Positions 1-13,525 of a stretch of 64,000 bases of DNA are shown here, piece by piece. A model generated the notes under the pieces. The model was not told where the DNA came from. It did no database searches and saw nothing but the letters and a program-made list of their open reading frames with translations. This DNA is from Pseudomonas protegens CHA0. GTDB taxonomy: Bacteria; Pseudomonadota; Gammaproteobacteria; Pseudomonadales; Pseudomonadaceae. The stretch covers positions 2,605,001-2,669,000 of the forward strand of contig NC_021237.1 of NCBI RefSeq assembly GCF_000397205.1. The letters run 5' to 3'. A program made the position numbers and the translations under genes. Numbering within the stretch: the first letter of the stretch is position 1; every line of letters starts with the position of its first letter.

Positions 1-593
1 ATGCTCGGGCCGCTGGCCTGCACATCCGCGACGTAGAACACCTGCTGGTAGGTGCCGCCGGGAAAGCTGGTGCCCAGGGTCTTGCGCACCGTGGAGCGGG
101 CGCCGTCGCAGCCGGCCAGGTAGAAGGCCTGGCAGTGTTCTTCGCGCCCGTCGGGGCCGCGCAGGCGGGCGTTGATCAGGTGGCCGTGGTCGGTGAAGGC
201 CAGCAGCTCGGTGTTGCGTTCGACCTCCACCCCCTGCAGCGCCAGGCGTTCGATCAGCAGTTGCTCGTGTTCGTCCTGAGGAAAGATCTGCAGGAAGGGG
301 TAGGGCGTCAGGTCTTCGCCGATGGCGTTGAACGGCAGGTGGGCGGCGCGCTCGCCCTTGACCCAGAGGTTCACCGCCGGCACATGGTGGCCGCGCTCGA
401 CGATGGCCCGGGTCAGGTCCAGCTGGCGGTACAGCTCAAGGGTTCGCGCCTGCACCGCCAGGGCCCGGGAGGTAGTGCCCGGGCCCGGGGTCTTGTCGAT
501 GATCCGCACCTTGACCCCCTGCCGGCGCAGCCAGAGCGCCAGGACCAGGCCGGTGGGGCCGGCGCCGATGATCAGTACGTCGCTGCAATTCAT
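1..593 (-). CDS. FAD-dependent aromatic-ring monooxygenase (3' part outside window)
   Basis: The minus-strand frame opens at the ATG at 593-591 and runs off the left edge without a stop, so only about 197 N-terminal residues are seen. The N-terminus has a dinucleotide-binding motif (IIGAGPTGLVLAL), followed by TTSRALAVQARTLE and, further on, GCDGARSTVRKTLG, the DG motif of class A flavoprotein hydroxylases (UbiH/PHBH superfamily). Such enzymes hydroxylate aromatic or polyketide substrates using NAD(P)H and O2. The substrate cannot be told from this part. It runs in the same direction as the LysE-type exporter just upstream, 51 bp away. Confidence 0.8.
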   Translation of the reverse strand, partial: MNCSDVLIIGAGPTGLVLALWLRRQGVKVRIIDKTPGPGTTSRALAVQARTLELYRQLDLTRAIVERGHHVPAVNLWVKGERAAHLPFNAIGEDLTPYPFLQIFPQDEHEQLLIERLALQGVEVERNTELLAFTDHGHLINARLRGPDGREEHCQAFYLAGCDGARSTVRKTLGTSFPGGTYQQVFYVADVQASGPS

Positions 594-644
594 GGGCTTG
601 CCCTCGGTAGACGATCAAGGTCATGCAGGCGGCTGCCGCCGGGC

Positions 645-1259
645 TCAGCGCTGGGCGAAGGCCAGGTTCAGGCCGAGCCCGGCGAAGCTTGCGGCAAAAC
701 TGCGGCGCAGCCAGTTCTGCACCTGGGGCGACTCGATCACCGCGGTGCGGAACAGGTTGGCCAGCAGGCCATAGAGCACGAACACGAAGAAGGTCATGGC
801 CATGAACACGCCGCTCAGGAGCAGCATCTGCGGGATCGGGTCGCTGCCGTCATGGGCGATGAACTGGGGCAGGAAGGCCAGGAAGAAGAGGGTCAGCTTG
901 GGGTTGAGGATATTCAGCAGGCAGGCCTTGAGCATCAGCGCGCCGGGGCCATGGCTGACGGCGTTGCTGTCCACGGCGAAGGCCGAGCGGTCGCGCCAGG
1001 TGGCGTAGGCCAGGTACAGCAGGTAGGCGACGCCGGCGAACTTCAGGCCCTGGAAGGCCAGCGCGCTGGAGTGCAGGATGGCCGACAGGCCGAGGATCGA
1101 GGCCAGCAGGTGCGGGACAATCCCGGCGGTGCAGCCGATGGCGGTGAACAGGCTGGCGCGCTTGCCGGCCACCAGGGCGGTGGAAATGGTCAGGATCACG
1201 CCGCTGCCGGGAATCAGCACGACGATCAGGCTGGTGATCAGGAAATCCAGGGTCAACAT
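645..1259 (-). CDS. LysE/RhtB-family amino-acid exporter
   Basis: This 204-residue protein is of usual length for LysE/RhtB exporters. It has about six hydrophobic segments, and the N-terminal helix carries the family's PG-x-G signature (LIPGSGVILTISTALVAG). The loop after TM1 contains GKRASLFTAIGCTAG, typical of the family. Function is inferred as inner-membrane efflux of an amino acid or small metabolite driven by proton motive force; the substrate is not predictable. The gene lies just upstream of the FAD monooxygenase on the same strand and could be co-transcribed with it. Confidence 0.85.
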   Translation of the reverse strand: MLTLDFLITSLIVVLIPGSGVILTISTALVAGKRASLFTAIGCTAGIVPHLLASILGLSAILHSSALAFQGLKFAGVAYLLYLAYATWRDRSAFAVDSNAVSHGPGALMLKACLLNILNPKLTLFFLAFLPQFIAHDGSDPIPQMLLLSGVFMAMTFFVFVLYGLLANLFRTAVIESPQVQNWLRRSFAASFAGLGLNLAFAQR

Positions 1260-1370
1260 CCGGGCATCACTCCATTGAGGGCAGGCGCGGGGTTAGGGCT
1301 GGGCGCCACACCGAGGTCGGGGGTCATCAAAATACACCCAGCCACACCGCCAATAGAAGGATTCTAGCCT

Positions 1371-1494
1371 GTAGCCGCTGCTGAGCCCGCGAAGCTGCGC
1401 AAAGGTCCGCAGGACCTTGCCTGGCGATCTCCCGCCGATCGCGCAGAGGCCTCAGGGTCGCGGCGTCTGCTGCGCAGCCTGCGGCAGCGGCTAC
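1371..1494. repeat. 124-bp intergenic repeat, copy A
   Basis: This stretch starts GTAGCCGCTGCTGAGCC and ends with GCAGCGGCTAC, so its ends are inverted repeats of each other. It matches 5267-5390 nearly base for base over the same length, and a shorter diverged relative lies at 43798. The internal part (CGAAGCTGCGCAAAGGTCC, then GCAGGACCTTGCC) is conserved. It lies between the divergent LysE gene and the DUF1615 gene. It is probably a non-autonomous REP/MITE-like element; no coding frame is supported in it. Confidence 0.8.
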
Positions 1495-1591
1495 AAGGGC
1501 CGCGGCGGGAACAGCGCTCGCATTCCTTGGTCGAACGCCCCAGCCGCTGCTTTACTTGCACGGCCCTCGCCCAGCCATCTCGCGGAGCCCC

Positions 1592-2683
1592 ATGATTTCC
1601 TCTCGTCTTCTCAGTTGCTTCCTGGGCCTGTCGCTGCTGGCCGGTTGCGCCAGCCAGCGCGGCCCCCAGGCACCAACACTGACCCCCGAACAGACCCAGG
1701 CCCGGATCCTGCGCCTGCTGCCGGCCCAGGTGGCGGACCGCCCGGGCTGGGCCCGGGACATCCAGGTGGCCTTCAGCGCCCAGGGCCTTGAGCCGAGCCA
1801 GAGCAACCTGTGCGCGGTGCTGGCGGTGACCGAGCAGGAGTCCACCTTCCAGGTCGACCCGACGGTGCCGGGCCTGGGGCGCATCGCCCGGCAAGAGATC
1901 GACCGCCGCGCGGCCAAGGTGCATGTGCCGGCGCTACTGGTCAGCGCCGCCCTGCAAGTGCGCGGCCCGGACGGCCAGTCCTACAGCCAGCGCCTGGCCA
2001 GTGCCCGCAGCGAGAAGGAATTGAGTGCGATCTTCGATGACTTCATCGGCATGGTGCCCCTGGGCAAGACCCTGTTCGGCGGCTTCAACCCGGTGCACAC
2101 CGGTGGGCCGATGCAGGTCAGCATCGAGTTCGCCCAGCAGCATGCCCAGGGCTATCCCTACCCGGTGCAGGACTCCATCCGTCATGAGGTCTTCAGCCGC
2201 CGCGGCGGCCTGTATTTCGGCATCGCCCACCTGTTGGGCTACCCGGTGGACTACCCGCAGCCGTTGTACCGTTTCGCCGATTTCAACGCCGGCTGGTACG
2301 CCAGCCGCAACGCGGCGTTCCAGAGCGCGGTGAGCCGTGCGAGCGGGATCAGGCTGGCGCTGGATGGCGACCTGATCCGCTACGGCTCGGTCATGCCCGG
2401 CAGCACCGAGCTGGCGGTGCGCACCCTGGGCAAGCAGCTGGGGCTGCGTAACCCGCAGATCCGCGCCCAGCTGGAGAAGGGCGACCGCCAGGACTTCGAA
2501 GAAACCGAGCTGTACCGTCAGGTGTTCGCCCTGGCCGATCGCACGGCGGGCAAGCCCGTACCGCGCCAGCAACTGCCCGGCATCGAACTCAAGAGCCCGA
2601 AGATCACCCGCCAGCTGACCACAGCCTGGTTCGCCAAACGGGTGGACGAACGCTACCAGCGCTGCCTGCAACGCCCGCTGTAG
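1592..2683 (+). CDS. DUF1615-family lipoprotein
   Basis: 363 residues. The start is the ATG at 1592, preceded by GGAG; the longer frame from 1556 has no ribosome site. The N-terminus is a lipoprotein signal peptide with lipobox LLAGC, so a membrane-anchored envelope protein is expected. The body matches what I know of the DUF1615 family in Pseudomonas (early TPEQTQARILRLLP, then LCAVLAVTEQESTFQVDP). The E-Q-E-S-T-F segment resembles the active-site region of lytic transglycosylase-like folds, but that link is only suggestive. Its stop codon TAG is formed by the first bases of the following REP element. Confidence 0.75.
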   Translation: MISSRLLSCFLGLSLLAGCASQRGPQAPTLTPEQTQARILRLLPAQVADRPGWARDIQVAFSAQGLEPSQSNLCAVLAVTEQESTFQVDPTVPGLGRIARQEIDRRAAKVHVPALLVSAALQVRGPDGQSYSQRLASARSEKELSAIFDDFIGMVPLGKTLFGGFNPVHTGGPMQVSIEFAQQHAQGYPYPVQDSIRHEVFSRRGGLYFGIAHLLGYPVDYPQPLYRFADFNAGWYASRNAAFQSAVSRASGIRLALDGDLIRYGSVMPGSTELAVRTLGKQLGLRNPQIRAQLEKGDRQDFEETELYRQVFALADRTAGKPVPRQQLPGIELKSPKITRQLTTAWFAKRVDERYQRCLQRPL

Positions 2684-2754
2684 GAGCTGGCTTGCCAGCG
2701 AAGGCGGCCGCCAGGGCGATGCAGGGCCTCTTCGCCGGCAAGCCGGCTTCCACA
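2680..2754. repeat. REP element pair
   Basis: GTAGGAGCTGGCTTGCCAGCGAA is followed after about 25 bp by its inverted partner ending CCGGCAAGCCGGCTTCC. This is a typical Pseudomonas REP doublet able to form a long hairpin. It overlaps the stop codon of the DUF1615 gene (TAG at 2681-2683). Confidence 0.9.
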
Positions 2755-2822
2755 GGGGGCACTGTTGTGCGGGGAGCAGGTGCTTGCTTGTCAGGCCCGG
2801 GGGCGGCGTGGCAGGATGCGCC

Positions 2823-2933
2823 ATGAATTTTTTCCAGCTCGTCTCCCGCCCTCATCACCATCGACCTCATCTCCGGGGCCGTGGTCGCTTGTGCGCGTCG
2901 AGCCGTCAGTCATCGAGCAATCGCGATCACTGA
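2823..2933 (+). CDS. Candidate histidine-rich leader peptide (attenuator)
   Basis: A 36-codon frame with an AGGA site six bases before its ATG. Residues 11-16 read HHHRPH, so four of six codons are His; the peptide ends near a terminator (2953-2978) and is followed by a HisRS-like gene at 3010. This is the layout of a His-codon attenuator: His-tRNA shortage stalls the ribosome on the His run and changes folding of the downstream RNA. The other frame in this stretch has no such signal. The antiterminator pairing was not worked out, so the call stays tentative. Confidence 0.5.
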   Translation: MNFFQLVSRPHHHRPHLRGRGRLCASSRQSSSNRDH

Positions 2934-2952
2934 CCTTCGATGAAAAAAAACC

Positions 2953-2978
2953 AAGGCGCCCCACAAGGCGCCTTTTTT
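2953..2978 (+). terminator. Rho-independent terminator between leader peptide and HisRS-like gene
   Basis: The stem AAGGCGCC (2953-2960) pairs with GGCGCCTT (2967-2974) across a CCACAA loop and runs straight into a T-tract (2973-2978). It lies 20 bp after the leader-peptide stop and about 30 bp before the next start codon, as an attenuator terminator would. An A-tract at 2943-2950 means it could also act on the minus strand. Confidence 0.75.
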
Positions 2979-3009
2979 ATTGCCTGTCAAAAAACCAGAG
3001 GAATGACCC

Positions 3010-3640
3010 ATGACCATGTTACGTGGCACTCGAATGATCACCGGCGAACAAGCCGCCACCCTGCGCACCCTGGAAGGACGCTTCCGGAGCTGGCTTCATC
3101 GAAGCGGGCGCTGAAGAAGTCATTGTCCCGGCGCTGTGGGGCCAGGACACCTTTATCGAGAAGGCCGGAGGTAGCGAAGTCATCGGCCAGATGTGGGCCT
3201 TCAACGACAAGGCCGGGCGGCCTTGCTGCCTGATCCCGGAAGCCACCGCGCTGTTCCAGGAAACCGCCGGCGAGCTGCTGGCGGGGCGCGAGCAGGCGGC
3301 CTTCTTCTACGTTGCCCGCTGCTATCGCTACGAGCGCCCGCAAGCCGGGCGGTATCGAGAGTTCACCCAGTTGGGCCTGGAGATTCTCGGCCCCGATCCG
3401 CAGCGCGCCCTGGAGCAGGCGCGGGCGCTGTGCGTGGGCTTTCTCGACGCCTTGGGCCTGGAATACCAGCTCAACCTCGGGGTCAAGCGCGGCCTGACCT
3501 ACTACCTCAATGGCGAGGGTTTCGAAGTGCGCTGCCCGCGCCTGGGGGCGCAGCAGCAAGTGGTGGGGGCAGGCGCCTATCGCCAGGGTGCCGGCTTCGG
3601 CATTGGCCTGGAGCGCCTGCAACTGGCGCTGCAAGCCTGA
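3010..3640 (+). pseudogene. HisRS-like class II synthetase paralogue, frameshifted
   Basis: The frame from ATG 3010 gives an HisRS-type start (MTMLRGTRMITGEQAATLRTLEGRF) and stops after 34 codons. The frame offset by one base continues the same protein (GAGFIEAGAEEVIVPALWG, then IGQMWAFNDKAGR) to 3640. It contains class II motif 2 (FYVARCYRYERPQAGRYREF) and a motif 3-like GIGLERLQLAL. Intact, the protein would be about 210 residues, much shorter than HisS, with no anticodon-binding domain, so it is a stand-alone catalytic-core-like paralogue (HisZ-like regulator or amino-acid ligase are possible). The shift lies near 3084-3092. A sequencing error is not excluded. Confidence 0.65.
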
Positions 3641-3653
3641 CCGCCTGCGTGCG

Positions 3654-3735
3654 GTAGGAGCTGGCTTGCCAGCGAAGGCGTTCGCCAGGGCGGTGCAAGG
3701 CTTGCGGGCCTCTTCGCCGGCAAGCCGGCTCCTAC
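3654..3735. repeat. REP element pair
   Basis: GTAGGAGCTGGCTTGCCAGC opens the unit and GCCGGCAAGCCGGCTCCTAC closes it. It is the first of two nearly identical doublets in tandem (the next at 3766) in the space between the HisRS-like pseudogene and the convergent DUF4349 gene. Confidence 0.9.
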
Positions 3736-3765
3736 GGGTGGGGCTCTGGGAAGTGCCTGCTTGCT

Positions 3766-3847
3766 GTAGGAGCTGGCTTGCCAGCGAAGGCATTCGCCAG
3801 GGCGGTGCAGGGCTTGCGGGCCTCTTCGCCGGCAAGCCGGCTCCTAC
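3766..3847. repeat. REP element pair, second tandem copy
   Basis: Near-duplicate of 3654-3735, including the internal GCTTGCGGGCCTCTTCGCCG. It ends nine bases before the stop codon of the minus-strand DUF4349 gene and may serve as its 3' hairpin. Confidence 0.9.
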
Positions 3848-3855
3848 GGGTGGGG

Positions 3856-4653
3856 TCAGGGGCGCCGGCGCACGAATTTGCGCCACAGCCAGACCCACAG
3901 CAGCACCAGGGGGAAGGCCAGGATCACGAAGGGCAGCACATAGCTGCCTTTCTCCAGGGCCTCGGCGGTGCCGTCGGCCAGGTTGTCCAGCAGGTTGCTG
4001 AAGGCGCGCTTGAGGCTGGATTCGCGCTGGACGCCGTCGCTGGGCAGGAACTTCAGGGTCAGGAGGTTGGTGTCCAGGCGGCGTTGCTGGCCGGCGGCGG
4101 TCTGGGCCAGGGCCTGCAGGTCGTTCTCGATGCCGGCCTGTTCCCGGCTCAGGGCAATCAGGTCGCTGACGCTGATGTCCTTGCGCGCCGCCAGTTCGTC
4201 CAGGCGCTGCTGTTGGGCCTTGAGCCGCTGCTGCTGGCGCTGCACATCGGCCACGGCATCGGCCAGGTCTTCGGCGCTGGTGATGCGCTCGCCCAGTTCC
4301 GCGCCCTGGGAGGCCTGCTGGACGATGGGCTCCACACCGTCCGGAACTATTCGCAGCGTCACCTGGGCGCGGTACTTGCCCTGTTCCAGGCGCAGGATAT
4401 TGCACGGGCCGAACTGGGCCTTCTCGCAGGCTTCGCGGGTTTGCGCCAGGCGCGGACCGATCTGCGCGGCTGGCAGCGACAGGCTCAGTTCATGCTCATA
4501 GGCCAATTGCGCGCCGGCCTTGCCCTGGGCCCCGCCCAAGGCCACGGCGCTGCTGTTGTGGTCGCCGGGAGAGCAGGCGCTGAGGGCCAGGGCGCCGAAC
4601 AGGGCCAGGGCCAGTCGACGGAATTTCGCAGGGTGATCGTCCTGATGTTGCAT
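3856..4653 (-). CDS. DUF4349 lipoprotein with C-terminal membrane anchor
   Basis: 265 residues. The N-terminal signal ends in the lipobox LALSAC. The middle (about residues 140-200) is Gln/Leu/Arg-rich coiled coil (VADVQRQQQRLKAQQQRLDE), and the C-terminus has one strong TM helix (SYVLPFVILAFPLVLLWVW) followed by a basic tail. This architecture matches DUF4349 proteins, whose role is not known. Two REP doublets lie directly downstream. Confidence 0.75.
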   Translation of the reverse strand: MQHQDDHPAKFRRLALALFGALALSACSPGDHNSSAVALGGAQGKAGAQLAYEHELSLSLPAAQIGPRLAQTREACEKAQFGPCNILRLEQGKYRAQVTLRIVPDGVEPIVQQASQGAELGERITSAEDLADAVADVQRQQQRLKAQQQRLDELAARKDISVSDLIALSREQAGIENDLQALAQTAAGQQRRLDTNLLTLKFLPSDGVQRESSLKRAFSNLLDNLADGTAEALEKGSYVLPFVILAFPLVLLWVWLWRKFVRRRP

Positions 4654-4850
4654 GGGGGCTCCTTGAGGGATGAATCGGCGACAGGGTCGCAGGTGCGCAT
4701 CTTACCGTCGTTCGGGGAAAGACCACGATCCCGGCTGGGCTTATCGAGGATAATTTTCCTGGCTGATGCTGATAGGCGCGGAGCGGGTTCAGGGCTACAC
4801 CTGTGGCAGCCCGGGACGACGGTGTTTCGGCGCAGATCAAGGAGTGCGTC

Positions 4851-5270
4851 ATGCGCGAGTCGGCTATCCCCCCAGGCTTTGCCCCCTTGCCCCGCAGCAG
4901 CCCGCTGCTGGAACTGATCGGCCCGGTCTACGGCTGCGGCAGTGGCAGCGAACTGCGCGTCGGCCTGCGCGCCGACACCCGCCACGCCAACGGCCGGGGC
5001 ACGGTGCATGGCGGCATCATCGCCACCCTGGCGGACATCGGCATGGGCTACGCCATGGCGTTTTCCAGCGATCCGCCCTTGCCGTTGATCACCGCCAGCA
5101 TGACCCTCGACTACCTGGGCGCGGTGCAGGTCGGGGAATGGATCGAGGTGCACCTGGAGCATGCCAAGCGTGGCCGGCAGATGGCCTTTGCCACCGTGGT
5201 GCTGCGGGTCGGCGAACAGGAAGTGGCCCGGGCCAGCGGCGTCTTCGCCGTCCCAACCGCAGCCCTGTAG
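4851..5270 (+). CDS. PaaI-family (hotdog) thioesterase
   Basis: 139 residues. The start ATG at 4851 has AAGGAG six bases upstream; the longer frame from 4803 has none. The hotdog active-site segment VHGGIIATLADIGMGYAM is of the PaaI/YbgC-like 4-hydroxybenzoyl-CoA thioesterase type. It probably hydrolyses an acyl- or aryl-CoA in the cytosol. The stop codon TAG falls on bases 2-4 of the 124-bp repeat at 5267. Confidence 0.85.
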   Translation: MRESAIPPGFAPLPRSSPLLELIGPVYGCGSGSELRVGLRADTRHANGRGTVHGGIIATLADIGMGYAMAFSSDPPLPLITASMTLDYLGAVQVGEWIEVHLEHAKRGRQMAFATVVLRVGEQEVARASGVFAVPTAAL

Positions 5271-5390
5271 CCGCTGCTGAGCCTGCGAAGCTGCGCAAAG
5301 GTCCGCAGGACCTTGCCTGGCGATCTTCCGTCGATCGCGCAGGGGCCTCAGGATCGCAGCGTCTGCTGCGCAGCCTGCGGCAGCGGCTAC
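5267..5390. repeat. 124-bp intergenic repeat, copy B
   Basis: Same length as, and nearly identical to, 1371-1494. Its inverted ends GTAGCC...GGCTAC supply the TAG stop codon for both neighbours: the thioesterase on the plus strand (5268-5270) and rtcR on the minus strand (5389-5387). It fills the entire space between these convergent genes and may serve as a shared terminator. Confidence 0.85.
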
Positions 5391-6979
5391 AGCTGTTTCC
5401 AATCCAGGCCGAAACGCGCCAGGTATTTGCGCAGGCGGTCGGCGTCGTTGGGGTTGGCCTTGCCCAGGCGTGACACGCCGAACAGCCGGCGCCCCGCCTC
5501 CGACAGGCTGTCGGCGCGGCGGCACTCGGCAATCACTGCCTTGAGTTGCAGGCGGTCGAACAGGTCCAGCTCCACATCGTCGCCCAGCAGTTTCTGCAGT
5601 TCGTCCTCTTGGTTCTCCAGCCCCCAGGCGTGGCGCAGGCGCTGGATTTCCTCCTCGACCTGGGCCTGGTCGATGCGTCCGCTGTCGGCCAGGGTGGCCA
5701 TGCGGGTGATGGAGGCCGACAGCTCGCGGAAGTTGCCCAGCCACGCCGCTTCGCTGGAGCTGGCAAAGGCCAGGTAGCGTCGCCGCGCTTCAAGGTTGAA
5801 GCGCACCAGCTGCCCTTGTTCCCGGGCGTGACGCTCCAGCTCGAAATCGATGTTCGGTTCGATGTCTTCGCGGCGCCCCGCCAGCCCCGGCAGGTTGAAG
5901 GTCCAGAGGTTGATCCGCGCATACAGGTCCTCGCGGAACAGCCCCTGGGCCACCCGGCCACGCAGGTCGCGGTGGGTGCCGGCGATGATCAGGAAATCGC
6001 TCTGCACCTCCTGGTCCGAACCCATGGGAAAGAAGCGCTTCTCCTCGATTGCCTTGAGCAGCATGGCCTGTTCGTCCAGCCCCAGTTCACCGATCTCGTC
6101 GAGAAACAGCATGCCGCCATCCGCCGCCCGCAGCAGGCCTTCGCGGGCATTCTGGGCGCCGGTGAAGGCGCCCTTGATATGGCCGAACAGCGCCGACATG
6201 GCCCCGTCCCCACGCAGGGTGGCGCAGTTGACCTCGACAAAGCGCCCCTGCACCTGGTGCCGGCCACGCTTGAGCTCATAGATGCGCCGGGCCAGGAACG
6301 ACTTGCCGGCACCGGTGGGGCCGATCAGCAGCATCGGTGCCCTGGAGCGCACCGCGACCCGCTCGATCTGCTCGATGGAGCGGTTGAATGCCGGGTTGCG
6401 GGTGGCGATCCCGGACTTGAGGAAGGCCAGGCCCTCCAGGCGCTTGTGGGCAAAACGCGAGGCGATGCGGTCGTAGCGCGACAAGTCGAGGTCGATCAGG
6501 GCGTGGGTGCCGGTGGCGTGCTGGTCCGGGTCGCGGCGCCGCGCCGGTGAGGTCTGGATCAGCCGGGCAGGGAGGTAGCGCGCCTCGGTCAGCAGGAACC
6601 AGCAGATCTGCGCCACGTGGGTGCCGGTGGTGATGTGCACCAGGTAGTCCTCGCGCTCGGTGTCGAACGGGTAGGCGCTGGTGAAGTCGTGCAGGGCGCC
6701 GTACACCTCCTCGAAATCCCAGGGATTGTTCAGGCCCATGGGGTGCAGGCGCACCTCGGTTTCCGGCGACACCTGGCGCACGTCGTTGGCCACCCGTTCG
6801 GCCAGGCTGACATCCCGCGCGTCCAGGCCATGGATCAGCTCCAGGCGGTTGATCAGCACATCCTGCTGCTGACACAGACCGACCGTGGGCCGCCAATGGC
6901 TCCAGCGGTTGGCACCCTTGCCGACGCGATCGAGGGTGGAACCGACAAAACCTATGGCGACCGTGGGCTTGTTCGACAT
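5387..6979 (-). CDS. rtcR: RtcR, CARF-domain sigma54 activator of the RNA-repair operon
   Basis: 530 residues. Residues 1-180 form the RtcR-type CARF ligand-sensing domain (note VHITTGTHVAQICWFLL near 114-130). The AAA+ domain follows, with Walker A GPTGAGKS at 220-227, the sigma54-contacting GAFTGA at 270-275 and Walker B GGMLFLDE at 289-296; the C-terminus is helical and likely DNA-binding. In characterised systems RtcR activates rtcBA from a sigma54 promoter on RNA damage, the CARF domain sensing an RNA end product. Here it is divergent from rsr, 204 bp away. A ribosome site (AGG) precedes the ATG by seven bases. Its stop codon comes from the repeat at 5267-5390. Confidence 0.95.
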   Translation of the reverse strand: MSNKPTVAIGFVGSTLDRVGKGANRWSHWRPTVGLCQQQDVLINRLELIHGLDARDVSLAERVANDVRQVSPETEVRLHPMGLNNPWDFEEVYGALHDFTSAYPFDTEREDYLVHITTGTHVAQICWFLLTEARYLPARLIQTSPARRRDPDQHATGTHALIDLDLSRYDRIASRFAHKRLEGLAFLKSGIATRNPAFNRSIEQIERVAVRSRAPMLLIGPTGAGKSFLARRIYELKRGRHQVQGRFVEVNCATLRGDGAMSALFGHIKGAFTGAQNAREGLLRAADGGMLFLDEIGELGLDEQAMLLKAIEEKRFFPMGSDQEVQSDFLIIAGTHRDLRGRVAQGLFREDLYARINLWTFNLPGLAGRREDIEPNIDFELERHAREQGQLVRFNLEARRRYLAFASSSEAAWLGNFRELSASITRMATLADSGRIDQAQVEEEIQRLRHAWGLENQEDELQKLLGDDVELDLFDRLQLKAVIAECRRADSLSEAGRRLFGVSRLGKANPNDADRLRKYLARFGLDWKQL

Positions 6980-7001
6980 GTTTATACCTGGAGATAAAAA
7001 A

Positions 7002-7027
7002 CGATAAGCAAAGATATAAAATTATCG
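7002..7027. promoter_or_regulatory. Candidate RtcR upstream activator site
   Basis: CGATAA (7002-7007) and TTATCG (7022-7027) form an inverted repeat in the AT-rich rtcR-rsr intergenic region, about 100 bp upstream of the sigma54 promoter, the usual distance for an enhancer. Further GATAA-type words occur nearby (about 6993 and 7062). Assignment to RtcR is inference. Confidence 0.35.
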
Positions 7028-7125
7028 AGGCGTTTGTCTTGCCGGATACGTGATGAAAAAGTGATAAAAAATAAAAACCTTATAAATCAATGAGTTGAAA
7101 AATAATTTGTTGGAAAATCAAAACC

Positions 7126-7142
7126 TGGCACAGCGGCTGCAA
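7126..7142 (+). promoter_or_regulatory. Sigma54 (-24/-12) promoter of the rsr-Y RNA-rtc operon
   Basis: TGGCACAGCGGCTGCAA has the invariant GG (7127-7128) and GC (7139-7140) separated by ten bases, matching the sigma54 consensus TGGCAC-N5-TTGCA. It lies 42 bp before the rsr start codon and downstream of the gene for a sigma54 activator read in the opposite direction, the expected arrangement for RtcR control. Confidence 0.85.
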
Positions 7143-7183
7143 TATCTCTGGCAACGAACAAGACAACAGAGCGAGACGCCAAG

Positions 7184-8728
7184 ATGGCCAACTTCCAGCT
7201 GTTCAACACCCAACAGGCAAAAGCGCCAGCGAGCACCACCCTGAACGCTTCCAAGGCCGGGGCCTATGCCTACAACGCCAAGCATCGCCTGGCCCAGCTG
7301 GCGGTCACCGGTTGCCTGAACTCGACCTTCTACACCTCGCCTGAAGGCCAGCTGGAAGCGGTACTGCAATTGGTGAGCGAGCTGGACAGCCGCTTCGTCG
7401 CCCAGGCCGCCCGTTACGCTCGGCAGCAAGGCCATATGAAGGACATGCCGGCGCTGCTGCTGGCGGCACTGACCGCGCAACGCTCGGCCCTGGTGCCGGA
7501 GCTGTTCGCCCAGGTGGTGGACAACGGCAAGATGCTGCGCAACTTCGTGCAGATCCTGCGCAGCGGCGTGACCGGGCGCAAATCCCTGGGGTCGCAGCCC
7601 AAGCGCCTGGTGCAGAACTGGTTGAACAGCGCTACCGAGCGCCAGCTGTTGCAGGCCTCGATCGGCAACCAGCCGTCCCTGGCGGACGTGGTGAAGATGG
7701 TTCACCCCAAGCCAAGCGAGGCCTGGCGTGAAGCCTTCTTTGCCTGGTTGATCGGCAAGCCGGTGGATGTGCAGGCGCTGCCTGAGCTGACCCGGGACCT
7801 GTTGGCGTTTCGCAGCGGAGCGACCCGGGAAGTGCCCCAGGTGCCGTTCCAGTTGCTCGGCAACGAGACACTGAGCACCGAACAATGGGCCGGGCAGGCC
7901 CGCAACATGGGCTGGCAGGGGCTGCGCATGAACCTCAATACCCTGGCGCGCCACGGCGCGTTCCAGGTGCCGGGTTGCACCGAGTACGTGGCGGCGCGGC
8001 TGGCGGATGCGGGGGAGGCGGCCAAGGCTCGGGTCTATCCGTACCAGTTGCTGGCGGCCTACCGCATGGCCGGTGACGAGGTGCCGCAGCCGGTCCGCGA
8101 GGCGCTGCAGGATGCCCTGGAGCTGTCCCTGGCCAACGTGCCGGCGCTGGCGGGCAACGTGGTGGTCTGCCCGGATGTATCGGGCTCGATGCACAGCCCT
8201 GTTACCGGCTATCGCCAGGGCGCCACCACCGCGGTGCGCTGCATCGATGTGGCGGCACTGGTGGCGGCAGCGGTGTTGCGCAAGCAGCCGGCGGCGCGGG
8301 TCATGCCGTTCGAGCGTGGAGTGGTGAACATCCACCTCAACCCGCGGGACAGCGTGATGAGCAATGCGCAGAAGCTGGCGAACATCGGCGGAGGGGGGAC
8401 CAACTGCTCGGCGCCCCTGGCACAACTGGCCAATGCCAAGAGCCGCGTGGACACGCTGATCCTGGTCTCGGACAACGAGTCGTGGATCGATGCGCGGCGC
8501 CACGGCGCCACGGAAACGATGCGCCAGTGGGAGCGGATCCGGGCCATCAACCCGCAGGCGAAGCTGGTATGCATCGACATGCAGCCCGGGGCCACGACCC
8601 AGGCACCGGACCGCGAGGACATCCTCAACGTCGGCGGCTTCAGTGACGCGGTGTTCGATGTGATTGAGCAGTTCACTGCGGGCAATTACGGTGCGCAGCA
8701 CTGGGTAAAGGCGATCGAGGCGATGTAA
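7184..8728 (+). CDS. rsr: Ro60 orthologue Rsr (TROVE-domain RNA-binding protein)
   Basis: 514 residues, of usual Ro60 length. The N-terminal two thirds is the TROVE HEAT-like ring (for example AARYARQQGHMKDMPALLLA near 75-95), which holds single-stranded RNA ends in its cavity and Y RNA on its surface. The C-terminus is a von Willebrand A domain with an intact MIDAS, DVSGS at 331-335, then TLILVSDNESWID. In known bacteria Rsr acts with Y RNA and exonucleases in RNA quality control. It is the first gene after the sigma54 promoter, and its 3' side carries five Y-RNA-like units, the natural partners. Confidence 0.95.
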   Translation: MANFQLFNTQQAKAPASTTLNASKAGAYAYNAKHRLAQLAVTGCLNSTFYTSPEGQLEAVLQLVSELDSRFVAQAARYARQQGHMKDMPALLLAALTAQRSALVPELFAQVVDNGKMLRNFVQILRSGVTGRKSLGSQPKRLVQNWLNSATERQLLQASIGNQPSLADVVKMVHPKPSEAWREAFFAWLIGKPVDVQALPELTRDLLAFRSGATREVPQVPFQLLGNETLSTEQWAGQARNMGWQGLRMNLNTLARHGAFQVPGCTEYVAARLADAGEAAKARVYPYQLLAAYRMAGDEVPQPVREALQDALELSLANVPALAGNVVVCPDVSGSMHSPVTGYRQGATTAVRCIDVAALVAAAVLRKQPAARVMPFERGVVNIHLNPRDSVMSNAQKLANIGGGGTNCSAPLAQLANAKSRVDTLILVSDNESWIDARRHGATETMRQWERIRAINPQAKLVCIDMQPGATTQAPDREDILNVGGFSDAVFDVIEQFTAGNYGAQHWVKAIEAM

Positions 8729-8756
8729 CGCTGATCGGTAGAGGATGACACAGACC

Positions 8757-8792
8757 GTGCGCCGGCCAGCCGGCGCACACCACAGATTTTTT
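8757..8792 (+). terminator. Terminator-like hairpin between rsr and the Y RNA array
   Basis: GTGCGCCGGC (8757-8766) is perfectly repeated inverted at 8769-8778, and a run of six T follows at 8787-8792. The eight-base gap before the T-tract is longer than ideal, so it may attenuate rather than stop transcription, or protect the rsr 3' end after processing. It could set the ratio of rsr mRNA to downstream ncRNA and rtc mRNA. Confidence 0.5.
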
Positions 8793-8799
8793 GCTCATT

Positions 8800-8857
8800 G
8801 GCCCTGAATGCCGCTGTGACTACATCCAAAGGCGTCTCAGCAACTCTTGTCAGGGCC
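8800..8857 (+). ncRNA. Y-RNA-like unit 1 (minimal, no tRNA module)
   Basis: GGCCCTGA (8800-8807) pairs perfectly with TCAGGGCC (8850-8857). The inner borders carry the array signature: GAATGC at 8806 and TTGTCA at 8847. The inside is only a short hairpin (GCTGTGAC with GTCTCAGC, one mismatch) and a loop with ACTACATCCAA, a segment shared with unit 3. Relative to units 2-5, a C-G pair next to the signature is replaced by T-A on both strands, a compensatory change. It would be a Ro60-binding stem without the tRNA mimic. Transcript ends are not known. Confidence 0.6.
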
Positions 8858-8863
8858 GGTGAC

Positions 8864-8939
8864 GGCACGAATGCCAGTGGCTGTACATATTGGTTAAGCC
8901 GGTTCGAATCCGGCGATCAGTCACTTCTTTTGTCGTGCC
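8864..8939 (+). ncRNA. Y-RNA-like unit 2 (T-arm only)
   Basis: The closing stem GGCACGA (8864-8870) pairs with TCGTGCC (8933-8939), and a run of six T follows at 8943-8948. Signatures are GAATGC at 8869 and TTGTCG at 8930. Inside, GTGGCTG (8877-8883) pairs with CAGTCAC (8918-8924) and encloses a perfect tRNA T-arm: GCCGG, loop TTCGAAT, CCGGC (8898-8914). No acceptor or D-arm is present. It is intermediate between unit 1 and the full units 3-5. Confidence 0.75.
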
Positions 8940-8956
8940 ACCTTTTTTGCAGTTTT

Positions 8957-9088
8957 TGCGACGAATGCTGATGGAACTACATCCAAGGTTCGAGATGCGG
9001 GTTCGATTCCCGCCGGTGCCGGAAAACGGCGCCGTGGTTCAATGGTCAGAACGCGAATGCACCGTTTCATCGACTCCTTGTCGTCGCA
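8957..9088 (+). ncRNA. Y-RNA-like unit 3 with permuted tRNA-like module
   Basis: The closing stem TGCGACGA (8957-8964) pairs with TCGTCGCA (9081-9088); signatures are GAATGC at 8963 and TTGTCG at 9078. The order inside is T-arm GCGGG-TTCGATT-CCCGC (8997-9013), an acceptor-like hairpin CGGTGCCG with CGGCGCCG around a short A-rich loop, then a D-arm GTTC-AATGGTCA-GAAC. This is tRNA order cut at the anticodon and closed at the acceptor end. TCTTTTCC follows the stem and a CCCGCC/GGCGGG hairpin lies at 9098-9111. Confidence 0.85.
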
Positions 9089-9113
9089 TCTTTTCCCCCC
9101 GCCTCGGCGGGAT

Positions 9114-9221
9114 GGCAGCGAATGCCACGGGTACTACATCGTGTCGCGGGTTCGAACCCCGCCAGCCGCAAGGCTGTAGCTCAGTCGGTAGAGCAAATGT
9201 GCCTGTTCCCTTGTCGCTGCC
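9114..9221 (+). ncRNA. Y-RNA-like unit 4 with permuted tRNA-like module
   Basis: The closing stem GGCAGCGA (9114-9121) pairs with TCGCTGCC (9214-9221); signatures are GAATGC at 9120 and TTGTCG at 9211. T-arm GCGGG-TTCGAAC-CCCGC (9146-9162); acceptor CAGCC/GGCTG (9163-9176) capped by a GCAA tetraloop in place of the CCA end; canonical D-arm GCTC-AGTCGGTA-GAGC (9179-9194). It is the closest to a real tRNA elbow of the five. A GC hairpin (9223-9237) follows and could mark the 3' side. Confidence 0.88.
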
Positions 9222-9248
9222 CGCAGGCCCGGCCTGCACCGATTGACC

Positions 9249-9363
9249 CGGCGAATGCCGGTGGAACTACAGGACAGCGTGGTCGCGGGTTCGAGTCCCG
9301 TTCACCGCAAGGTGCTAGCTCAGAGGCAGAGCGCGCTGCATGTTTCACCTCCACTTGTCGCCG
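9249..9363 (+). ncRNA. Y-RNA-like unit 5 with permuted tRNA-like module
   Basis: The closing stem CGGCGA (9249-9254) pairs with TCGCCG (9358-9363); signatures are GAATGC at 9253 and TTGTCG at 9355. T-arm GCGGG-TTCGAGT-CCCGT (9285-9301, last pair G-T); acceptor CACC/GGTG (9303-9314) again capped by GCAA; D-arm GCTC-AGAGGCA-GAGC (9318-9332). It resembles unit 4 in layout but its acceptor stem sequence differs, so the pair is not a recent exact duplication. Confidence 0.85.
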
Positions 9364-9386
9364 TTTGCACCGAACACCGCAATTGC

Positions 9387-9447
9387 GTAGGAGCTGGCTT
9401 GCCAGCGAAGAGACCCCCGAGATCGTCTTCTGCGACCCGGCTCCTGC
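9387..9447. repeat. Partial REP element between Y RNA array and rtcB
   Basis: GTAGGAGCTGGCTTGCCAGCGAAG opens the unit in standard form, but the closing arm is degenerate (ACCCGGCTCCTGC). It lies inside the operon between the ncRNA array and rtcB, where a hairpin could separate stable ncRNA from the mRNA. Confidence 0.7.
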
Positions 9448-9500
9448 GCACCCTATTGAACAAGGCCGTATCCGCGGCCACAGGAAAAAGAGTCAACGAC

Positions 9501-10727
9501 ATGGAACACAAGACCTACCAGCTGCTGGAAGTCGCCAACGGCAAGCCGATCAAGATGTGGACCCAGGGCGTGCCGGTGGAAAACGAAGCCCGCCAGCAAT
9601 TGATGAACACCGCGAAGATGCCGTTCATCTTCAAGCACCTGGCGGTGATGCCCGACGTGCACCTGGGTAAGGGTTCGACCATCGGTAGCGTGATCCCCAC
9701 GGTGGGCGCGATCATCCCGGCTGCGGTCGGGGTGGATATCGGCTGCGGAATGATCGCCGCCCGTACTTCGCTGACCGCCTCCGACCTGCCGGATAACCTG
9801 GCCGGGTTGCGTAGCGCCATCGAGCAGGCGGTGCCCCACGGCCGTACCTCGCCCCGTAGCGGTCGCGATAAAGGTGCCTGGGGTGATGTGCCGCAGCAGA
9901 CCGACCTGGCTTGGGCGGCCTTGCATCCGCGCTTCAAGGCGATCACCGATAAGTACCCGGCCCTGGCCAACAGCAACAACCGCCAGCACCTGGGAACCCT
10001 CGGCGGGGGTAACCACTTCATCGAGGTCTGCCTGGATGAGGCCAACCGGGTCTGGTTCATGCTCCACAGCGGTTCCCGTGGCGTAGGTAACGCCATCGGC
10101 AACCTGTTCATTCACCTGGCCCAGGCCGATATGCGCCAGCACATCGCCAACCTGCCGGACCGCGACCTGGCCTATTTCGAGGAAGGCAGCCAGCACTTCA
10201 ACGATTACGTGGAAGCGGTGGCCTGGGCCCAGGATTTCGCCCGGCAGAACCGTGAGCTGATGATGCAACTGGTGATCCAGGCCACCCGCAAGGTGATCAG
10301 CAAGCCCTTCGAGGTGGCGCTGGAGGCAGTCAACTGCCACCACAACTACGTGCAGAAGGAGCGCCACTTCGGTGAAGAGGTGCTGGTGACCCGCAAGGGG
10401 GCGGTGTCGGCGAAGAAGGGCGAGCTGGGGATCATTCCGGGTTCGATGGGGGCCAAGAGCTTCATTGTCCGCGGATTGGGTAACGAGGAGGCGTTCTGCT
10501 CCTGCAGCCACGGCGCGGGGCGTACCATGAGCCGCACCAAGGCCAAGAACACCTTCACCCTGGCCGACCAGATCCGCGCGACCGCCCATGTGGAGTGCCG
10601 TAAGGACGAAGCGGTGATCGATGAAATCCCGATGGCCTACAAGGACATCGACCAAGTGATGCACGCCCAGCGCGAGCTGGTGGAAGTGCTGCACACCCTG
10701 CGTCAGGTGGTGTGCGTTAAGGGGTAG
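9501..10727 (+). CDS. rtcB: RNA-splicing ligase RtcB
   Basis: 408 residues, the E. coli RtcB length. The start is the ATG at 9501; the frame extends upstream only as shadow over the ncRNA array. RtcB joins RNA 2',3'-cyclic-phosphate or 3'-phosphate ends to 5'-OH ends using GTP and Mn. Visible metal and catalytic residues: GVDIGCGM (Cys82), GGGNHFIE (His172), HSGSRGVG (His189), NCHHNY (280-281), and the guanylylated His337 in SCSHGAGR. Four bases separate its stop from the next gene. It is co-directional with rsr under the sigma54 promoter. Confidence 0.97.
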   Translation: MEHKTYQLLEVANGKPIKMWTQGVPVENEARQQLMNTAKMPFIFKHLAVMPDVHLGKGSTIGSVIPTVGAIIPAAVGVDIGCGMIAARTSLTASDLPDNLAGLRSAIEQAVPHGRTSPRSGRDKGAWGDVPQQTDLAWAALHPRFKAITDKYPALANSNNRQHLGTLGGGNHFIEVCLDEANRVWFMLHSGSRGVGNAIGNLFIHLAQADMRQHIANLPDRDLAYFEEGSQHFNDYVEAVAWAQDFARQNRELMMQLVIQATRKVISKPFEVALEAVNCHHNYVQKERHFGEEVLVTRKGAVSAKKGELGIIPGSMGAKSFIVRGLGNEEAFCSCSHGAGRTMSRTKAKNTFTLADQIRATAHVECRKDEAVIDEIPMAYKDIDQVMHAQRELVEVLHTLRQVVCVKG

Positions 10728-12736: not shown

Positions 12737-13525
12737 ATGGAACATCTGGAGCGCCATCCCCTGAGCAGCGCCATGCGCGAACGGGTATTGGCCGAGCTGG
12801 CGCGGATCGAGCGCGAGCGCAATGTGCAGGTGCTGTACGCCTGCGAATCCGGCAGTCGGGCCTCGGGCTTTGCCTCTACCGACAGCGATTACGATGTGCG
12901 TTTCGTCTATGTGGAAAAGCCCGAATGGTTCATCCAGGTGGATGCCGGGCGCGACGTGATCGAGCGGCCCCTGGACGACGAGCTGGACATCAGCGGCTGG
13001 GAACTGCGCAAGACCCTGGGGCTGTTGCGCAAGTCCAACCCGACCCTGCTGGAATGGCTGGATTCGCCCCTGGTGTACCGCAGCGAACCGACCGCCGCCG
13101 AGCGCCTGCGTGAGCTGGCCGAGGCGTTCTACAGCCCGCCGGCGGCGCGCAACCATTATCTGTCGATGGCCAGGAAGAACTTTCGCGGTTACCTGCAAGG
13201 CGACAGCGTGCGCTTCAAGAAGTACTTCTACGTCCTGCGGCCATTGCTGGCGGTGCGCTGGATCGACCAGGGGCGCGGCCGACCGCCGATGACCTTCGCC
13301 GACCTGCTGACCACCGTCGACCATCAGCCACTGCTGGACGAGGTGGCTGAGCTGCTGGTTTTGAAACGCTGCGCCGACGAGTCCGCCTACGGACCGCGAC
13401 GCCCGGCACTGCACGCCTTTATCGCCGCCGAGCTGGAACGCCCGATGCCGAAACTGGTGCGTACCCATGAAGACAACGCGTTGCTGGACGCTTACCTGCG
13501 GGAAACGGTCCGGCACTACGCCTGA
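12737..13525 (+). CDS. Pol-beta-type nucleotidyltransferase (YcgL/COG3541-like) of the RNA-repair operon
   Basis: 262 residues. The nucleotidyltransferase signature is intact: ESGSRASGFASTDSDYDVRFVYV (about residues 40-60), giving GSR, then S-D-x-D metal ligands. A helical C-terminal part follows (RNHYLSMARKNFRGYLQGD). The family resembles COG3541 'predicted nucleotidyltransferase'. Members of this fold add nucleotides to RNA, proteins or small molecules. Co-transcription with rtcB and rtcA makes RNA 3'-end addition the first hypothesis, unproven. It is spaced 15 bp from the gene before and 8 bp from rtcA. Confidence 0.8.
   Translation: MEHLERHPLSSAMRERVLAELARIERERNVQVLYACESGSRASGFASTDSDYDVRFVYVEKPEWFIQVDAGRDVIERPLDDELDISGWELRKTLGLLRKSNPTLLEWLDSPLVYRSEPTAAERLRELAEAFYSPPAARNHYLSMARKNFRGYLQGDSVRFKKYFYVLRPLLAVRWIDQGRGRPPMTFADLLTTVDHQPLLDEVAELLVLKRCADESAYGPRRPALHAFIAAELERPMPKLVRTHEDNALLDAYLRETVRHYA

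What the first reader, a model, noticed from the sequence alone, without database searches (positions are those of the whole stretch)
8800..9363. Tandem array of five Y-RNA-like ncRNAs between rsr (Ro60) and rtcB
Between 8800 and 9363 five units repeat the same plan: a 6-8 bp perfect closing stem whose sequence differs in each unit, a 5' border (C/T)GAATGC (8806, 8869, 8963, 9120, 9253) and a 3' border TTGTC(G/A) (8847, 8930, 9078, 9211, 9355). Different stem sequences with pairing kept in all five are strong evidence of RNA structure. Established: bacterial Ro60 (Rsr) binds Y RNAs; in Salmonella the rsr-yrlBA-rtcBA operon carries YrlA/YrlB, and YrlA has a tRNA-like domain. An array of five in one sigma54/RtcR-controlled operon is, to my knowledge, more than the one or two usually described. 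Inference: a set of Ro60 adapters is made only on RNA damage.
Basis: partly seen in the sequence, partly recalled or inferred. Interest (0 to 1): 0.95.

Follow-up and report, generated by a model that had tools for sequence, protein, structure and literature searches.

The report
Five-type Y RNA array beside Ro60
Between the genes for the RNA-binding protein Ro60 and the RNA ligase RtcB, this Pseudomonas genome carries five different Y-RNA-like structures in a row, distinct types that recur in the same order in related species and likely give one Ro60 ring several different RNA adapters when the RNA-repair operon is switched on.

Summary
Five units lie at 8800-8857, 8864-8939, 8957-9088, 9114-9221 and 9249-9363 between rsr and rtcB, with perfect closing stems of 8, 7, 8, 8 and 6 bp; 1 of 2000 shuffles gave even one. 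Units 3-5 match Rfam YrlA, though only unit 5 passes its cut-off; units 1 and 2 pass no cut-off.

In 46 Pseudomonas loci they are five orthologous types, A to E, in fixed order except in three loci. Best matches between 14 complete arrays fall in the same slot in 907 of 910 comparisons. Compensatory changes occur in every type, weakly in D and E. A has no tRNA-like part, B a T-arm-like hairpin, C-E a permuted tRNA body. The type B model hits exactly the 40 of 398 Pseudomonas genomes that carry rsr.

Five units are common here (at least 17 of 46 loci). Possibly new is the ordered, graded set whose near-constant members are A and B, not the YrlA types. Transcription, processing and Rsr binding are untested. 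Chen 2014, the key paper, could not be read, so novelty is provisional.

The parts
5387..6979 (-). rtcR, sigma54-dependent activator of RNA repair operons, divergent from rsr
   Evidence: NCBIfam NF038308 838 bits (cut-off 650), Pfam RtcR 280 bits
7126..7141 (+). predicted sigma54 (-24/-12) promoter of rsr
   Evidence: TGGCAC-N6-TGCW, the only match in the window, though 54 of 100 shuffles of the window also hold one or more; within 350 nt upstream of rsr in 65 of 79 loci with upstream sequence
7184..8728 (+). rsr, divergent bacterial Ro60
   Evidence: Pfam vWA_Ro60 79.1 bits (cut-off 27.7) but TROVE 20.8 (cut-off 23); PDB best 2nvo D. radiodurans Rsr 1.6e-25; AlphaFold model pLDDT 81.9; all 13 Foldseek hits at E<=0.001 are Ro60 or TROVE-domain structures
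8757..8778 (+). spacer hairpin between rsr and unit A
   Evidence: 9-bp hairpin; GC-rich hairpin in 21 of 43 Pseudomonas rsr-A spacers
8800..8857 (+). unit 1, type A: short Y-RNA-like unit without tRNA-like domain
   Evidence: 8-bp closing stem; 8 of 16 pairs with changes on both sides in 27 sequences; model R1 at 44 bits or more in the first slot of 45 of 46 Pseudomonas loci
8864..8939 (+). unit 2, type B: Y-RNA-like unit with a T-arm-like hairpin (8898-8914)
   Evidence: 6 of 25 pairs with changes on both sides in 36 sequences; R2 at 58 bits or more in 46 of 46 Pseudomonas loci; YrlB only 20.1 bits (cut-off 97)
8957..9088 (+). unit 3, type C: YrlA-like, permuted tRNA body 8997-9052 (T-arm, 7-bp acceptor-like hairpin, 2 nt, D-arm)
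   Evidence: YrlA 54.3 bits, below the cut-off of 69; 5 of 32 pairs with changes on both sides in 20 sequences; parser
9098..9111 (+). spacer hairpin between units C and D
   Evidence: hairpin in 16 of 19 Pseudomonas C-D spacers
9114..9221 (+). unit 4, type D: YrlA-like, permuted tRNA body 9146-9194 with 5-bp acceptor-like stem closed by GCAA
   Evidence: YrlA 66.5 bits, below the cut-off; 2 of 30 pairs with changes on both sides in 21 sequences; 28 of 28 type D units monophyletic
9223..9237 (+). spacer hairpin between units D and E
   Evidence: hairpin in 15 of 16 Pseudomonas D-E spacers
9249..9363 (+). unit 5, type E: YrlA, permuted tRNA body 9285-9332
   Evidence: YrlA 73.9 bits, above cut-off 69; 3 of 27 pairs with changes on both sides in 26 sequences
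9501..10727 (+). rtcB, RNA ligase
   Evidence: Pfam RtcB 443.5 bits
10732..12075 (+). HEAT-repeat protein, next gene after rtcB on the same strand
   Evidence: Pfam HEAT_2 50.2 bits
12092..12721 (+). open frame without a family match
   Evidence: no Pfam or NCBIfam hit at 1e-3
12737..13525 (+). RlaP-family protein (RNA repair pathway, DNA polymerase beta family)
   Evidence: Pfam RlaP 314.1 bits
13531..14562 (+). rtcA, RNA 3'-terminal phosphate cyclase
   Evidence: NCBIfam 468.4 bits (cut-off 352)

Best explanation
The stretch 8800-9363 encodes five tandem Y-RNA-like structures that are likely transcribed with rsr and rtcB from one predicted sigma54 promoter, likely cut apart, and would each dock onto the same Rsr (Ro60) ring through the closing stem, so that one ring would be offered several different effector heads. 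Shown by sequence: five units with kept pairing; five orthologous types (A-E) in the same order in 43 of 46 Pseudomonas loci; a shared end (closing stem, GAATGC, TTGTC) with heads ranging from none (A) through a T-arm-like hairpin (B) to a permuted tRNA body without anticodon arm (C, D, E); and linkage of type B to rsr in 398 genomes. Inferred: co-transcription and processing. [quoted passage not shown] My reading is that A and B are the constant core, perhaps gating the ring, while C, D and E are optional tRNA-mimicking adapters that would bring PNPase or tRNA-handling enzymes to the ring during tRNA damage.
For: Observation far above chance. YrlA matches for C, D, E and for orthologs in relatives. 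In all five alignments 0 of 500 shuffles reach the observed percentage paired, the number of cells changed on both sides, or the covariation score. Same-slot best match 907 of 910 among 14 ABCDE arrays, and 244 of 245 between two groups of Pseudomonas. C 21/21 and D 28/28 monophyletic within Pseudomonas, support 0.999 and 1.0. tRNA geometry: 110 of 308 units have all three arms; in these the D-arm starts 2 nt after the acceptor-like stem in 94 and that stem abuts the T-stem in 103. Type B found in exactly the 40 rsr-bearing genomes of 398. Rsr has a Ro60 fold. Sigma54-type motif upstream of rsr in 65 of 79 loci. Rsr and Y RNA tether PNPase, and RtcR binds tRNA fragments, in other species (PMC7790460 and PMC8394870, passages read).
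Against: No transcript or binding data. Units A and B match no Rfam family at its cut-off, and C and D are below the YrlA cut-off in this genome. Unconstrained single-sequence folds give the expected head for B and D but not for C, and only in part for E, and E folds no better than many shuffles (z -1.46, 16 of 200 as good). Part of the 398-genome test is by construction, since R2 was built from rsr loci. TTC[GA]A is present in only 17 of 36 type B sequences, so B is not a strict T-arm mimic. Arrays in L057, L102, L100 and L106 repeat similar units, which suits dosage as well as specialisation. In covariation control (a) two count measures are weak: pairs changed on both sides are reached by 18, 23, 3, 118 and 201 of 500 shuffles for A-E, and further pair types by 165, 500, 378, 290 and 189. 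In control (b) the +3 slide of E reaches the same covariation score as the structure (0.097). Type E did not form one clade. Ortholog and paralog identities overlap slightly (lowest ortholog 0.63, highest paralog 0.75).
Confidence: 0.7

Rival explanations
1. The five are Y RNAs but serve dosage: extra copies would make enough Y RNA to fill all Rsr rings after a burst of synthesis, and the differences between units are drift.
For: Unit number varies from 2 to 5 in Pseudomonas and 2 to 7 elsewhere; L057, L102, L100 and L106 repeat similar units.
Against: Types stay distinct and in order (907 of 910 same-slot best matches). Paralogs within one array have median identities of 0.35-0.68 while orthologs have 0.72-0.90. 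A is kept in 45 of 46 and B in 46 of 46 Pseudomonas loci while C, D and E come and go.
Confidence: 0.18
2. The tRNA-like units act mainly as decoys: they would hold tRNA-modifying or tRNA-cleaving enzymes away from real tRNAs during damage, independent of PNPase.
For: T-loop, D-loop GG and 2-nt spacing between acceptor-like stem and D-arm are those of tRNA (the tRNA rules are recalled). Hughes et al. 2020 propose YrlA as a possible competitive inhibitor of the anticodon nuclease (PMC7790460, passage read). The review PMC8394870 states that DusA and TruB modify YrlA (passage read).
Against: C, D and E lack an anticodon arm, and A has no tRNA-like part at all, so this cannot explain the most conserved pair A and B.
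Confidence: 0.12
3. The units are structured elements of the rsr-rtcB messenger (spacer, attenuators or processing sites that set the Rsr to RtcB ratio) and never act as free RNAs.
For: GC-rich hairpins stand in 16 of 19 C-D and 15 of 16 D-E spacers, and runs of 5 or more T follow 26 of 45 B and 11 of 21 C units.
Against: Borders shared with Y RNAs, tRNA geometry and YrlA homology go far beyond what a terminator needs. The terminator scan found 0 sites in 6900-9600 (2.5 expected in shuffles).
Confidence: 0.06
4. The units are tRNA-derived debris or mis-scored tRNA genes.
For: Weak tRNA model hits join the D-arm of one unit to the T-arm of the next (window 9173-9309, 19.5 bits; L080 5846-5984, 30.4 bits, above the tRNA cut-off of 29).
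Against: ARAGORN finds no tRNA there; pairing is maintained by compensatory change over many species.
Confidence: 0.02

Closest known systems
Salmonella rsr-yrlBA-rtcBA operon (YrlA RF02553, YrlB RF02565)
   Same: Gene order rsr - Y RNAs - rtcB - rtcA, RtcR with a sigma54 promoter, the YrlA-type RNA last in the array and a smaller RNA before it (PMC7790460 and PMC9879122, passages read; window).
   Different: Five units instead of two; type A matches no Rfam family; type B scores 20.1 bits against the YrlB cut-off of 97; HEAT, unknown and RlaP genes between rtcB and rtcA.
Deinococcus radiodurans Rsr-Y RNA-PNPase complex (RYPER)
   Same: Ro60 ring protein (2nvo is the best PDB hit) with Y RNAs; the complex is described in PMC4726728 and PMC8394870 (passages read).
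   Different: PNPase tethering untested here; no sequence relation of types A or B to the Deinococcus Y RNA was tested.
Permuted tmRNA (RF04321)
   Same: Weak matches over the type C core of L063 and L080 (29 and 27.5 bits), which has T-arm, acceptor-like stem and D-arm in permuted order.
   Different: Below the cut-off of 47; no tag-peptide part was sought; Ro60-type borders on both sides.
Animal Y RNAs with Ro60
   Same: Several different Y RNAs share one Ro60 binding stem and differ in the loop domain (PMC4726728, passages read).
   Different: The same review says bacterial Y RNAs are not homologous to vertebrate ones; here they form one array beside rsr.

Membership tests
Rfam YrlA (RF02553) | score at or above the gathering cut-off of 69 bits: unit 5 (E) | tested here: met
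   73.9 bits.
Rfam YrlA (RF02553) | score at or above the gathering cut-off of 69 bits: units 3 and 4 (C, D) | tested here: not met
   54.3 and 66.5 bits. Type D orthologs in L080 and L063 do reach it (77.7, 72.3); type C orthologs there do not (63.9, 61).
Rfam YrlA (RF02553) | tRNA-like domain of T-arm, acceptor-like stem and D-arm inside the closing stem | tested here: met
   Units 3, 4 and 5. Units 1 and 2: not met.
Rfam YrlB (RF02565) | score at or above the gathering cut-off of 97 bits | tested here: not met
   Unit 2 scores 20.1 bits; unit 1 has no match to it up to E=10.
bacterial Y RNAs in the wide sense | encoded beside an rsr gene and sharing the closing-stem plan | tested here: met
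   Signature at least twice in all 81 rsr loci examined; closing stems in the window; type B in the 40 rsr-bearing and none of the 358 other Pseudomonas genomes searched.
bacterial Y RNAs in the wide sense | bound by Rsr in the cell | not testable with these tools
   Needs pull-down or CLIP.
RYPER (Rsr-Y RNA-PNPase) | Y RNA tethers PNPase | not testable with these tools
   Known for D. radiodurans, and Rsr with YrlA binds PNPase in Salmonella, from papers read in passages.
Ro60/Rsr protein | Ro60 ring fold with vWA domain | tested here: met
   vWA_Ro60 79.1 bits, cut-off 27.7; all 13 Foldseek hits at E<=0.001 are Ro60 or TROVE-domain structures.
Ro60/Rsr protein | Pfam TROVE and NCBIfam Rsr cut-offs | tested here: not met
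   TROVE 20.8 against 23; NF041674 87.9 against 900.
RtcR-controlled RNA repair operon | divergent rtcR, sigma54 promoter, rtcB and rtcA | tested here: met
   the promoter is a motif match only, and regulation is untested.
tRNA gene | complete cloverleaf gene | tested here: not met
   ARAGORN finds none here; tRNA model at most 19.5 bits, cut-off 29.

The most novel reading that the evidence does not exclude
One bacterial Ro60 ring is served by a fixed, non-interchangeable kit of five Y RNA adapters that form a graded series from no tRNA mimicry (A) through a partial tRNA top-half mimic (B) to permuted tRNA bodies (C, D, E). The constant core of the kit is the pair A and B, which is not the YrlA type; the tRNA mimics are the optional part and can be lost altogether.
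Probability: 0.4. Interest if true: 0.75.

Novelty: new variant of a known kind. Interest (0 to 1): 0.56.

Why it matters
What bacterial Y RNAs do beyond tethering PNPase is open, and the papers I could read speak of one or two per species (D. radiodurans, Salmonella). A locus where evolution keeps five distinct heads on one Ro60-binding plan, in a fixed order, gives a natural mix-and-match set: each head can be deleted or swapped in a soil Pseudomonas to ask what it recruits. It also questions whether the tRNA-like Y RNA is the essential one, because in two Pseudomonas genomes with rsr (G337, G016) only types A and B were found at the locus and the best YrlA hits elsewhere are 27.8 and 28.5 bits, the background level. 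It further warns annotators that neighbouring units can be scored as an intron-bearing tRNA.

Tried and rejected
Rejected: chance repeats; tRNA genes; intrinsic terminators as the main content (0 sites). A code of mutually different closing stems that keeps tandem units from mispairing was considered and dropped without a calculation, because arrays such as L106 reuse nearly the same stem in several units (seen). A joint covariance model of types C, D and E (alignment A7) was not built because the inner stem of D was out of register (seen). A constrained fold energy for unit 3 was not obtained because my structure string was one character too long. A 23S-rRNA-like stretch in an Undibacterium unit was noted, but the 15 bases match exactly in only 1 of 117 loci, so no claim is made. 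The regex counts overstate the type C T-loop: L043 has TGCAAGC there (read), so it is 19 of 20.

Literature: Chen et al. 2014, Sim and Wolin 2018 (31), Wang et al. 2018 (32), Burroughs and Aravind 2016 (33, title and DOI recalled) and Wolin et al. 2013 (78) are not held. Searches in the open-licence library listed no title or abstract about such arrays in Pseudomonas; of the papers listed I read passages of eight. The unread papers may describe such arrays.

Full report
WHAT IS THERE. Five units sit between rsr (7184-8728) and rtcB (9501-10727): A 8800-8857, B 8864-8939, C 8957-9088, D 9114-9221, E 9249-9363. Each has the plan closing stem - GAATGC - inner stem - head - inner stem - TTGTC - closing stem. 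In 2000 dinucleotide shuffles of 8729-9500, one shuffle had one unit and 1999 had none. Folded alone, A, B, C and D are more stable than shuffles (z -2.90, -3.42, -3.17, -2.97); E is not clearly so (z -1.46, 16 of 200 shuffles as good). The unconstrained fold shows the expected head for B and D, not for C, and only in part for E.

THE OPERON. rtcR lies on the other strand (5387-6979; NCBIfam 838 bits, cut-off 650). A TGGCAC-N6-TGCW motif of sigma54 type stands at 7126-7141. It is the only match in the window, but 54 of 100 shuffles of the window hold at least one. Its position is the stronger evidence: such a motif lies within 350 nt upstream of rsr in 65 of the 79 loci (window included) that have upstream sequence; the 14 misses are named. 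No sigma70-type promoter (0.7 expected) or intrinsic terminator (2.5 expected) was found in 6900-9600. After rtcB come a HEAT-repeat protein, an open frame without family match, an RlaP-family protein and rtcA. The rsr product is a divergent Ro60: the Ro60 vWA domain passes its Pfam cut-off, but TROVE and the NCBIfam Rsr equivalog do not. Its AlphaFold model (17 sequences, mean pLDDT 81.9) finds 13 PDB chains at E<=0.001, all Ro60 or TROVE-domain structures, best 2nvo, D. radiodurans Rsr.

RFAM. At the gathering cut-off only unit E is called (YrlA 73.9 bits, cut-off 69). With relaxed thresholds D scores 66.5 and C 54.3 as YrlA, B 20.1 as YrlB (cut-off 97), and A has no YrlA or YrlB match. I scanned 7 of the 80 relatives with the relaxed threshold. 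In L080 and L063 YrlA matches C (63.9, 61), D (77.7, 72.3) and E (77.7, 80), and B weakly (26.8, 34). L060 has one YrlA match (52.2), L094 two, L110 and L086 three each, and L044 none.

RELATIVES. The scan with the window Rsr found 116 relatives and kept the best 80. I analysed all 80 plus the window. A 5' signature, [GA]A[AT]TGC-N6-13-TACA, occurs at least twice between rsr and rtcB in all 81 loci (where rtcB was not found, L078, L081 and L085, up to 2500 nt or the contig end). It occurs 0 times on the + strand of the window in 1-7000 and 10801-64000, and once on its - strand. In all there are 308 signatures, 286 with a paired closing stem. With border-only units added, the 46 Pseudomonas loci (window included) hold 2 (3 loci), 3 (21), 4 (5) or 5 units (17); the 35 other loci hold 2 to 7. 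These are mostly lower bounds: model hits add missing units in L065, L075 and L089, which would make 20 of 46 with five. So five is a common state in this lineage, not a record.

FIVE ORTHOLOGOUS TYPES. Units were labelled by similarity to the window units. In the 14 loci labelled ABCDE, the best match of a unit in another array is the same slot in 907 of 910 comparisons. Between the group near the window and the L063-L080 group it is 244 of 245. Median ortholog identity is 0.72 (A), 0.77 (B), 0.77 (C), 0.90 (D) and 0.81 (E); median paralog identity inside an array is 0.35 to 0.68. The ranges overlap slightly (lowest ortholog pair 0.63, highest paralog pair 0.75). In a tree of Pseudomonas C, D and E units, C (21 of 21) and D (28 of 28) are clades with support 0.999 and 1.0; E does not resolve as one clade, and with non-Pseudomonas units added C is no longer pure. 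The slot patterns are ABCDE 14, ABD 9, AB 7, ABE 7, ABCD 3 and six others once each. Order departs from A to E only in L057 and L102, which carry extra short units, and L066, whose first unit is odd. Four of the seven AB loci have a third unit that this signature missed. Model R1 (type A) reaches 44 bits or more in the first slot of 45 of 46 Pseudomonas loci (25.4 in L066), and model R2 (type B) 58 bits or more in 46 of 46. Both models were built from many of these loci, so the pattern rather than the score is informative. L044, L046 and L055 keep only A and B. Two of them were searched whole (G337 = L044, G016 = L046): their best YrlA hits are 27.8 and 28.5 bits, the background seen in all five genomes of that search.

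COVARIATION. For some searches I used 130 distinct complete units of the 169 Pseudomonas units (27 A, 36 B, 20 C, 21 D, 26 E). Dropped were identical copies, incomplete units, units 2-4 of L057 and L102, and unit 1 of L066. The structures were taken from the window row, for B from L064. Pairs with changes on both sides: A 8 of 16, B 6 of 25, C 5 of 32, D 2 of 30, E 3 of 27. Standard pairs form in 96.1, 98.2, 99.5, 93.6 and 97.0% of cells; the same structures slid by 1 to 3 columns give at most 58.2%. The shuffle control never reached the observed percentage, the number of cells changed on both sides, or the covariation score (0 of 500 each). Against this, the number of pairs changed on both sides was reached in 18, 23, 3, 118 and 201 of 500 shuffles, the number of further pair types in 165, 500, 378, 290 and 189, and for E the +3 slide reaches the observed covariation score (0.097). 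So A, B and C have good covariation support, while D and E rest mainly on conserved pairing. The tool warns that related sequences can exceed such shuffles without structure.

HEADS. A parser for T-arm, acceptor-like hairpin and D-arm found all three in 110 of 308 units, T-arm plus acceptor-like hairpin in 41, T-arm alone in 11 and none in 146. Of complete units of 95 nt or more, 139 of 151 have the T-arm, against 23 of 3020 shuffled ones. In the 110, the D-arm begins 2 nt after the acceptor-like stem in 94 and that stem abuts the T-stem in 103, which is the spacing of tRNA (recalled). The order T-arm - acceptor - D-arm is that of a circularly permuted tRNA without anticodon arm. Type C of the window has a 7-bp acceptor-like stem in tRNA register. 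In type B the inner pairs of a hairpin at the T-arm place form in 35 or 36 of 36 sequences, but TTC[GA]A stands there in only 17 of 36, and an acceptor-like hairpin is present in 25 of 36; the window's B lacks the latter. Type A has none of these parts.

LINKAGE. rsr is found in 40 of 398 Pseudomonas genomes. Model R2 hits 40 of the same 398 at E<=0.001, the same 40 handles, with every listed match within about 650 nt of rsr. None of the 358 genomes without rsr has a match. The model comes from rsr loci, so presence is partly by construction, and the search used stricter filters that lose weak matches; the absence from the 358 is the informative part.

HOW IT LIKELY WORKS. [quoted passage not shown] PMC9879122). 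Rsr and Y RNA tether PNPase in D. radiodurans, Rsr and YrlA associate with PNPase in Salmonella, and YrlA is modified by DusA and TruB. Applied here, damage would switch on one transcript carrying one ring protein and five adapters, followed by ligase and cyclase. Spacer hairpins (C-D 16 of 19, D-E 15 of 16, rsr-A 21 of 43; none of 41 A-B, 20 B-C, 9 B-D or 8 B-E spacers; rarer spacers not printed) are candidate processing sites. The choice between specialised heads and mere dosage is open; fixed slots and the retention of A and B favour specialisation, repeated units in L057, L102, L100 and L106 favour dosage there.

NOVELTY. Several Y RNAs per species are implied by the abstract of Chen et al. 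2014, as I recall it ('at least one Y RNA in each species contains a domain resembling tRNA'); the paper could not be read. I therefore file this as a new variant of a known kind. The orthologous, ordered, graded five-type set and the near-constant A and B pair are what I did not find in the nine searches named in Tried and rejected.

Noticed in passing
L110 5676-5809, L103 and L105 first unit: In three Enterobacterales loci the acceptor-like loop reads N-CCA exactly where a tRNA would have its discriminator base and CCA end, as if the Y RNA core came from two tandem tRNA genes read across their spacer.
   Followed up: partly
L080 5846-5984: The Rfam tRNA model scores 30.4 bits, above its cut-off of 29, by joining the D-arm of unit C to the T-arm of unit D: a false intron-bearing tRNA.
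   Followed up: partly
L086 6243-6620, L094 6805-7191: A small treble-clef zinc protein (Pfam zf_Tbcl, 44.6 and 51.9 bits) is encoded between rsr and rtcB, among or behind the Y RNA units; similar frames are visible in L085, L087 and L096.
   Followed up: partly
L086 6651-6665: A Y-RNA-like unit of Undibacterium holds TAACGGTCCTAAGGT, which resembles a universal 23S rRNA stretch (resemblance recalled); L087 has a shorter form.
   Followed up: partly
genome G108, C1:2335605-2337282: rsr is found in two pieces with a stop codon inside, yet types A and B lie behind it.
   Followed up: no
L044, last 100 nt before rtcB: A stretch resembling a decayed start of unit E stands where E would be (read).
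   Followed up: no
L106 5543-6262 and L100 5543-6191: Two kinds of short units alternate, three pairs (L106) or two pairs (L100), before a tRNA-like unit, which suggests tandem duplication of a unit pair.
   Followed up: no
9384-9450 and elsewhere in the window: REP-like palindromic repeats; one inverted pair stands between unit E and rtcB. 17 matches to one REP arm in the window against 0.01 expected.
   Followed up: partly
L043 5773-5908: Type C of P. piscis has lost the T-loop sequence and the D-loop GG together, as expected if the two loops contact each other.
   Followed up: no
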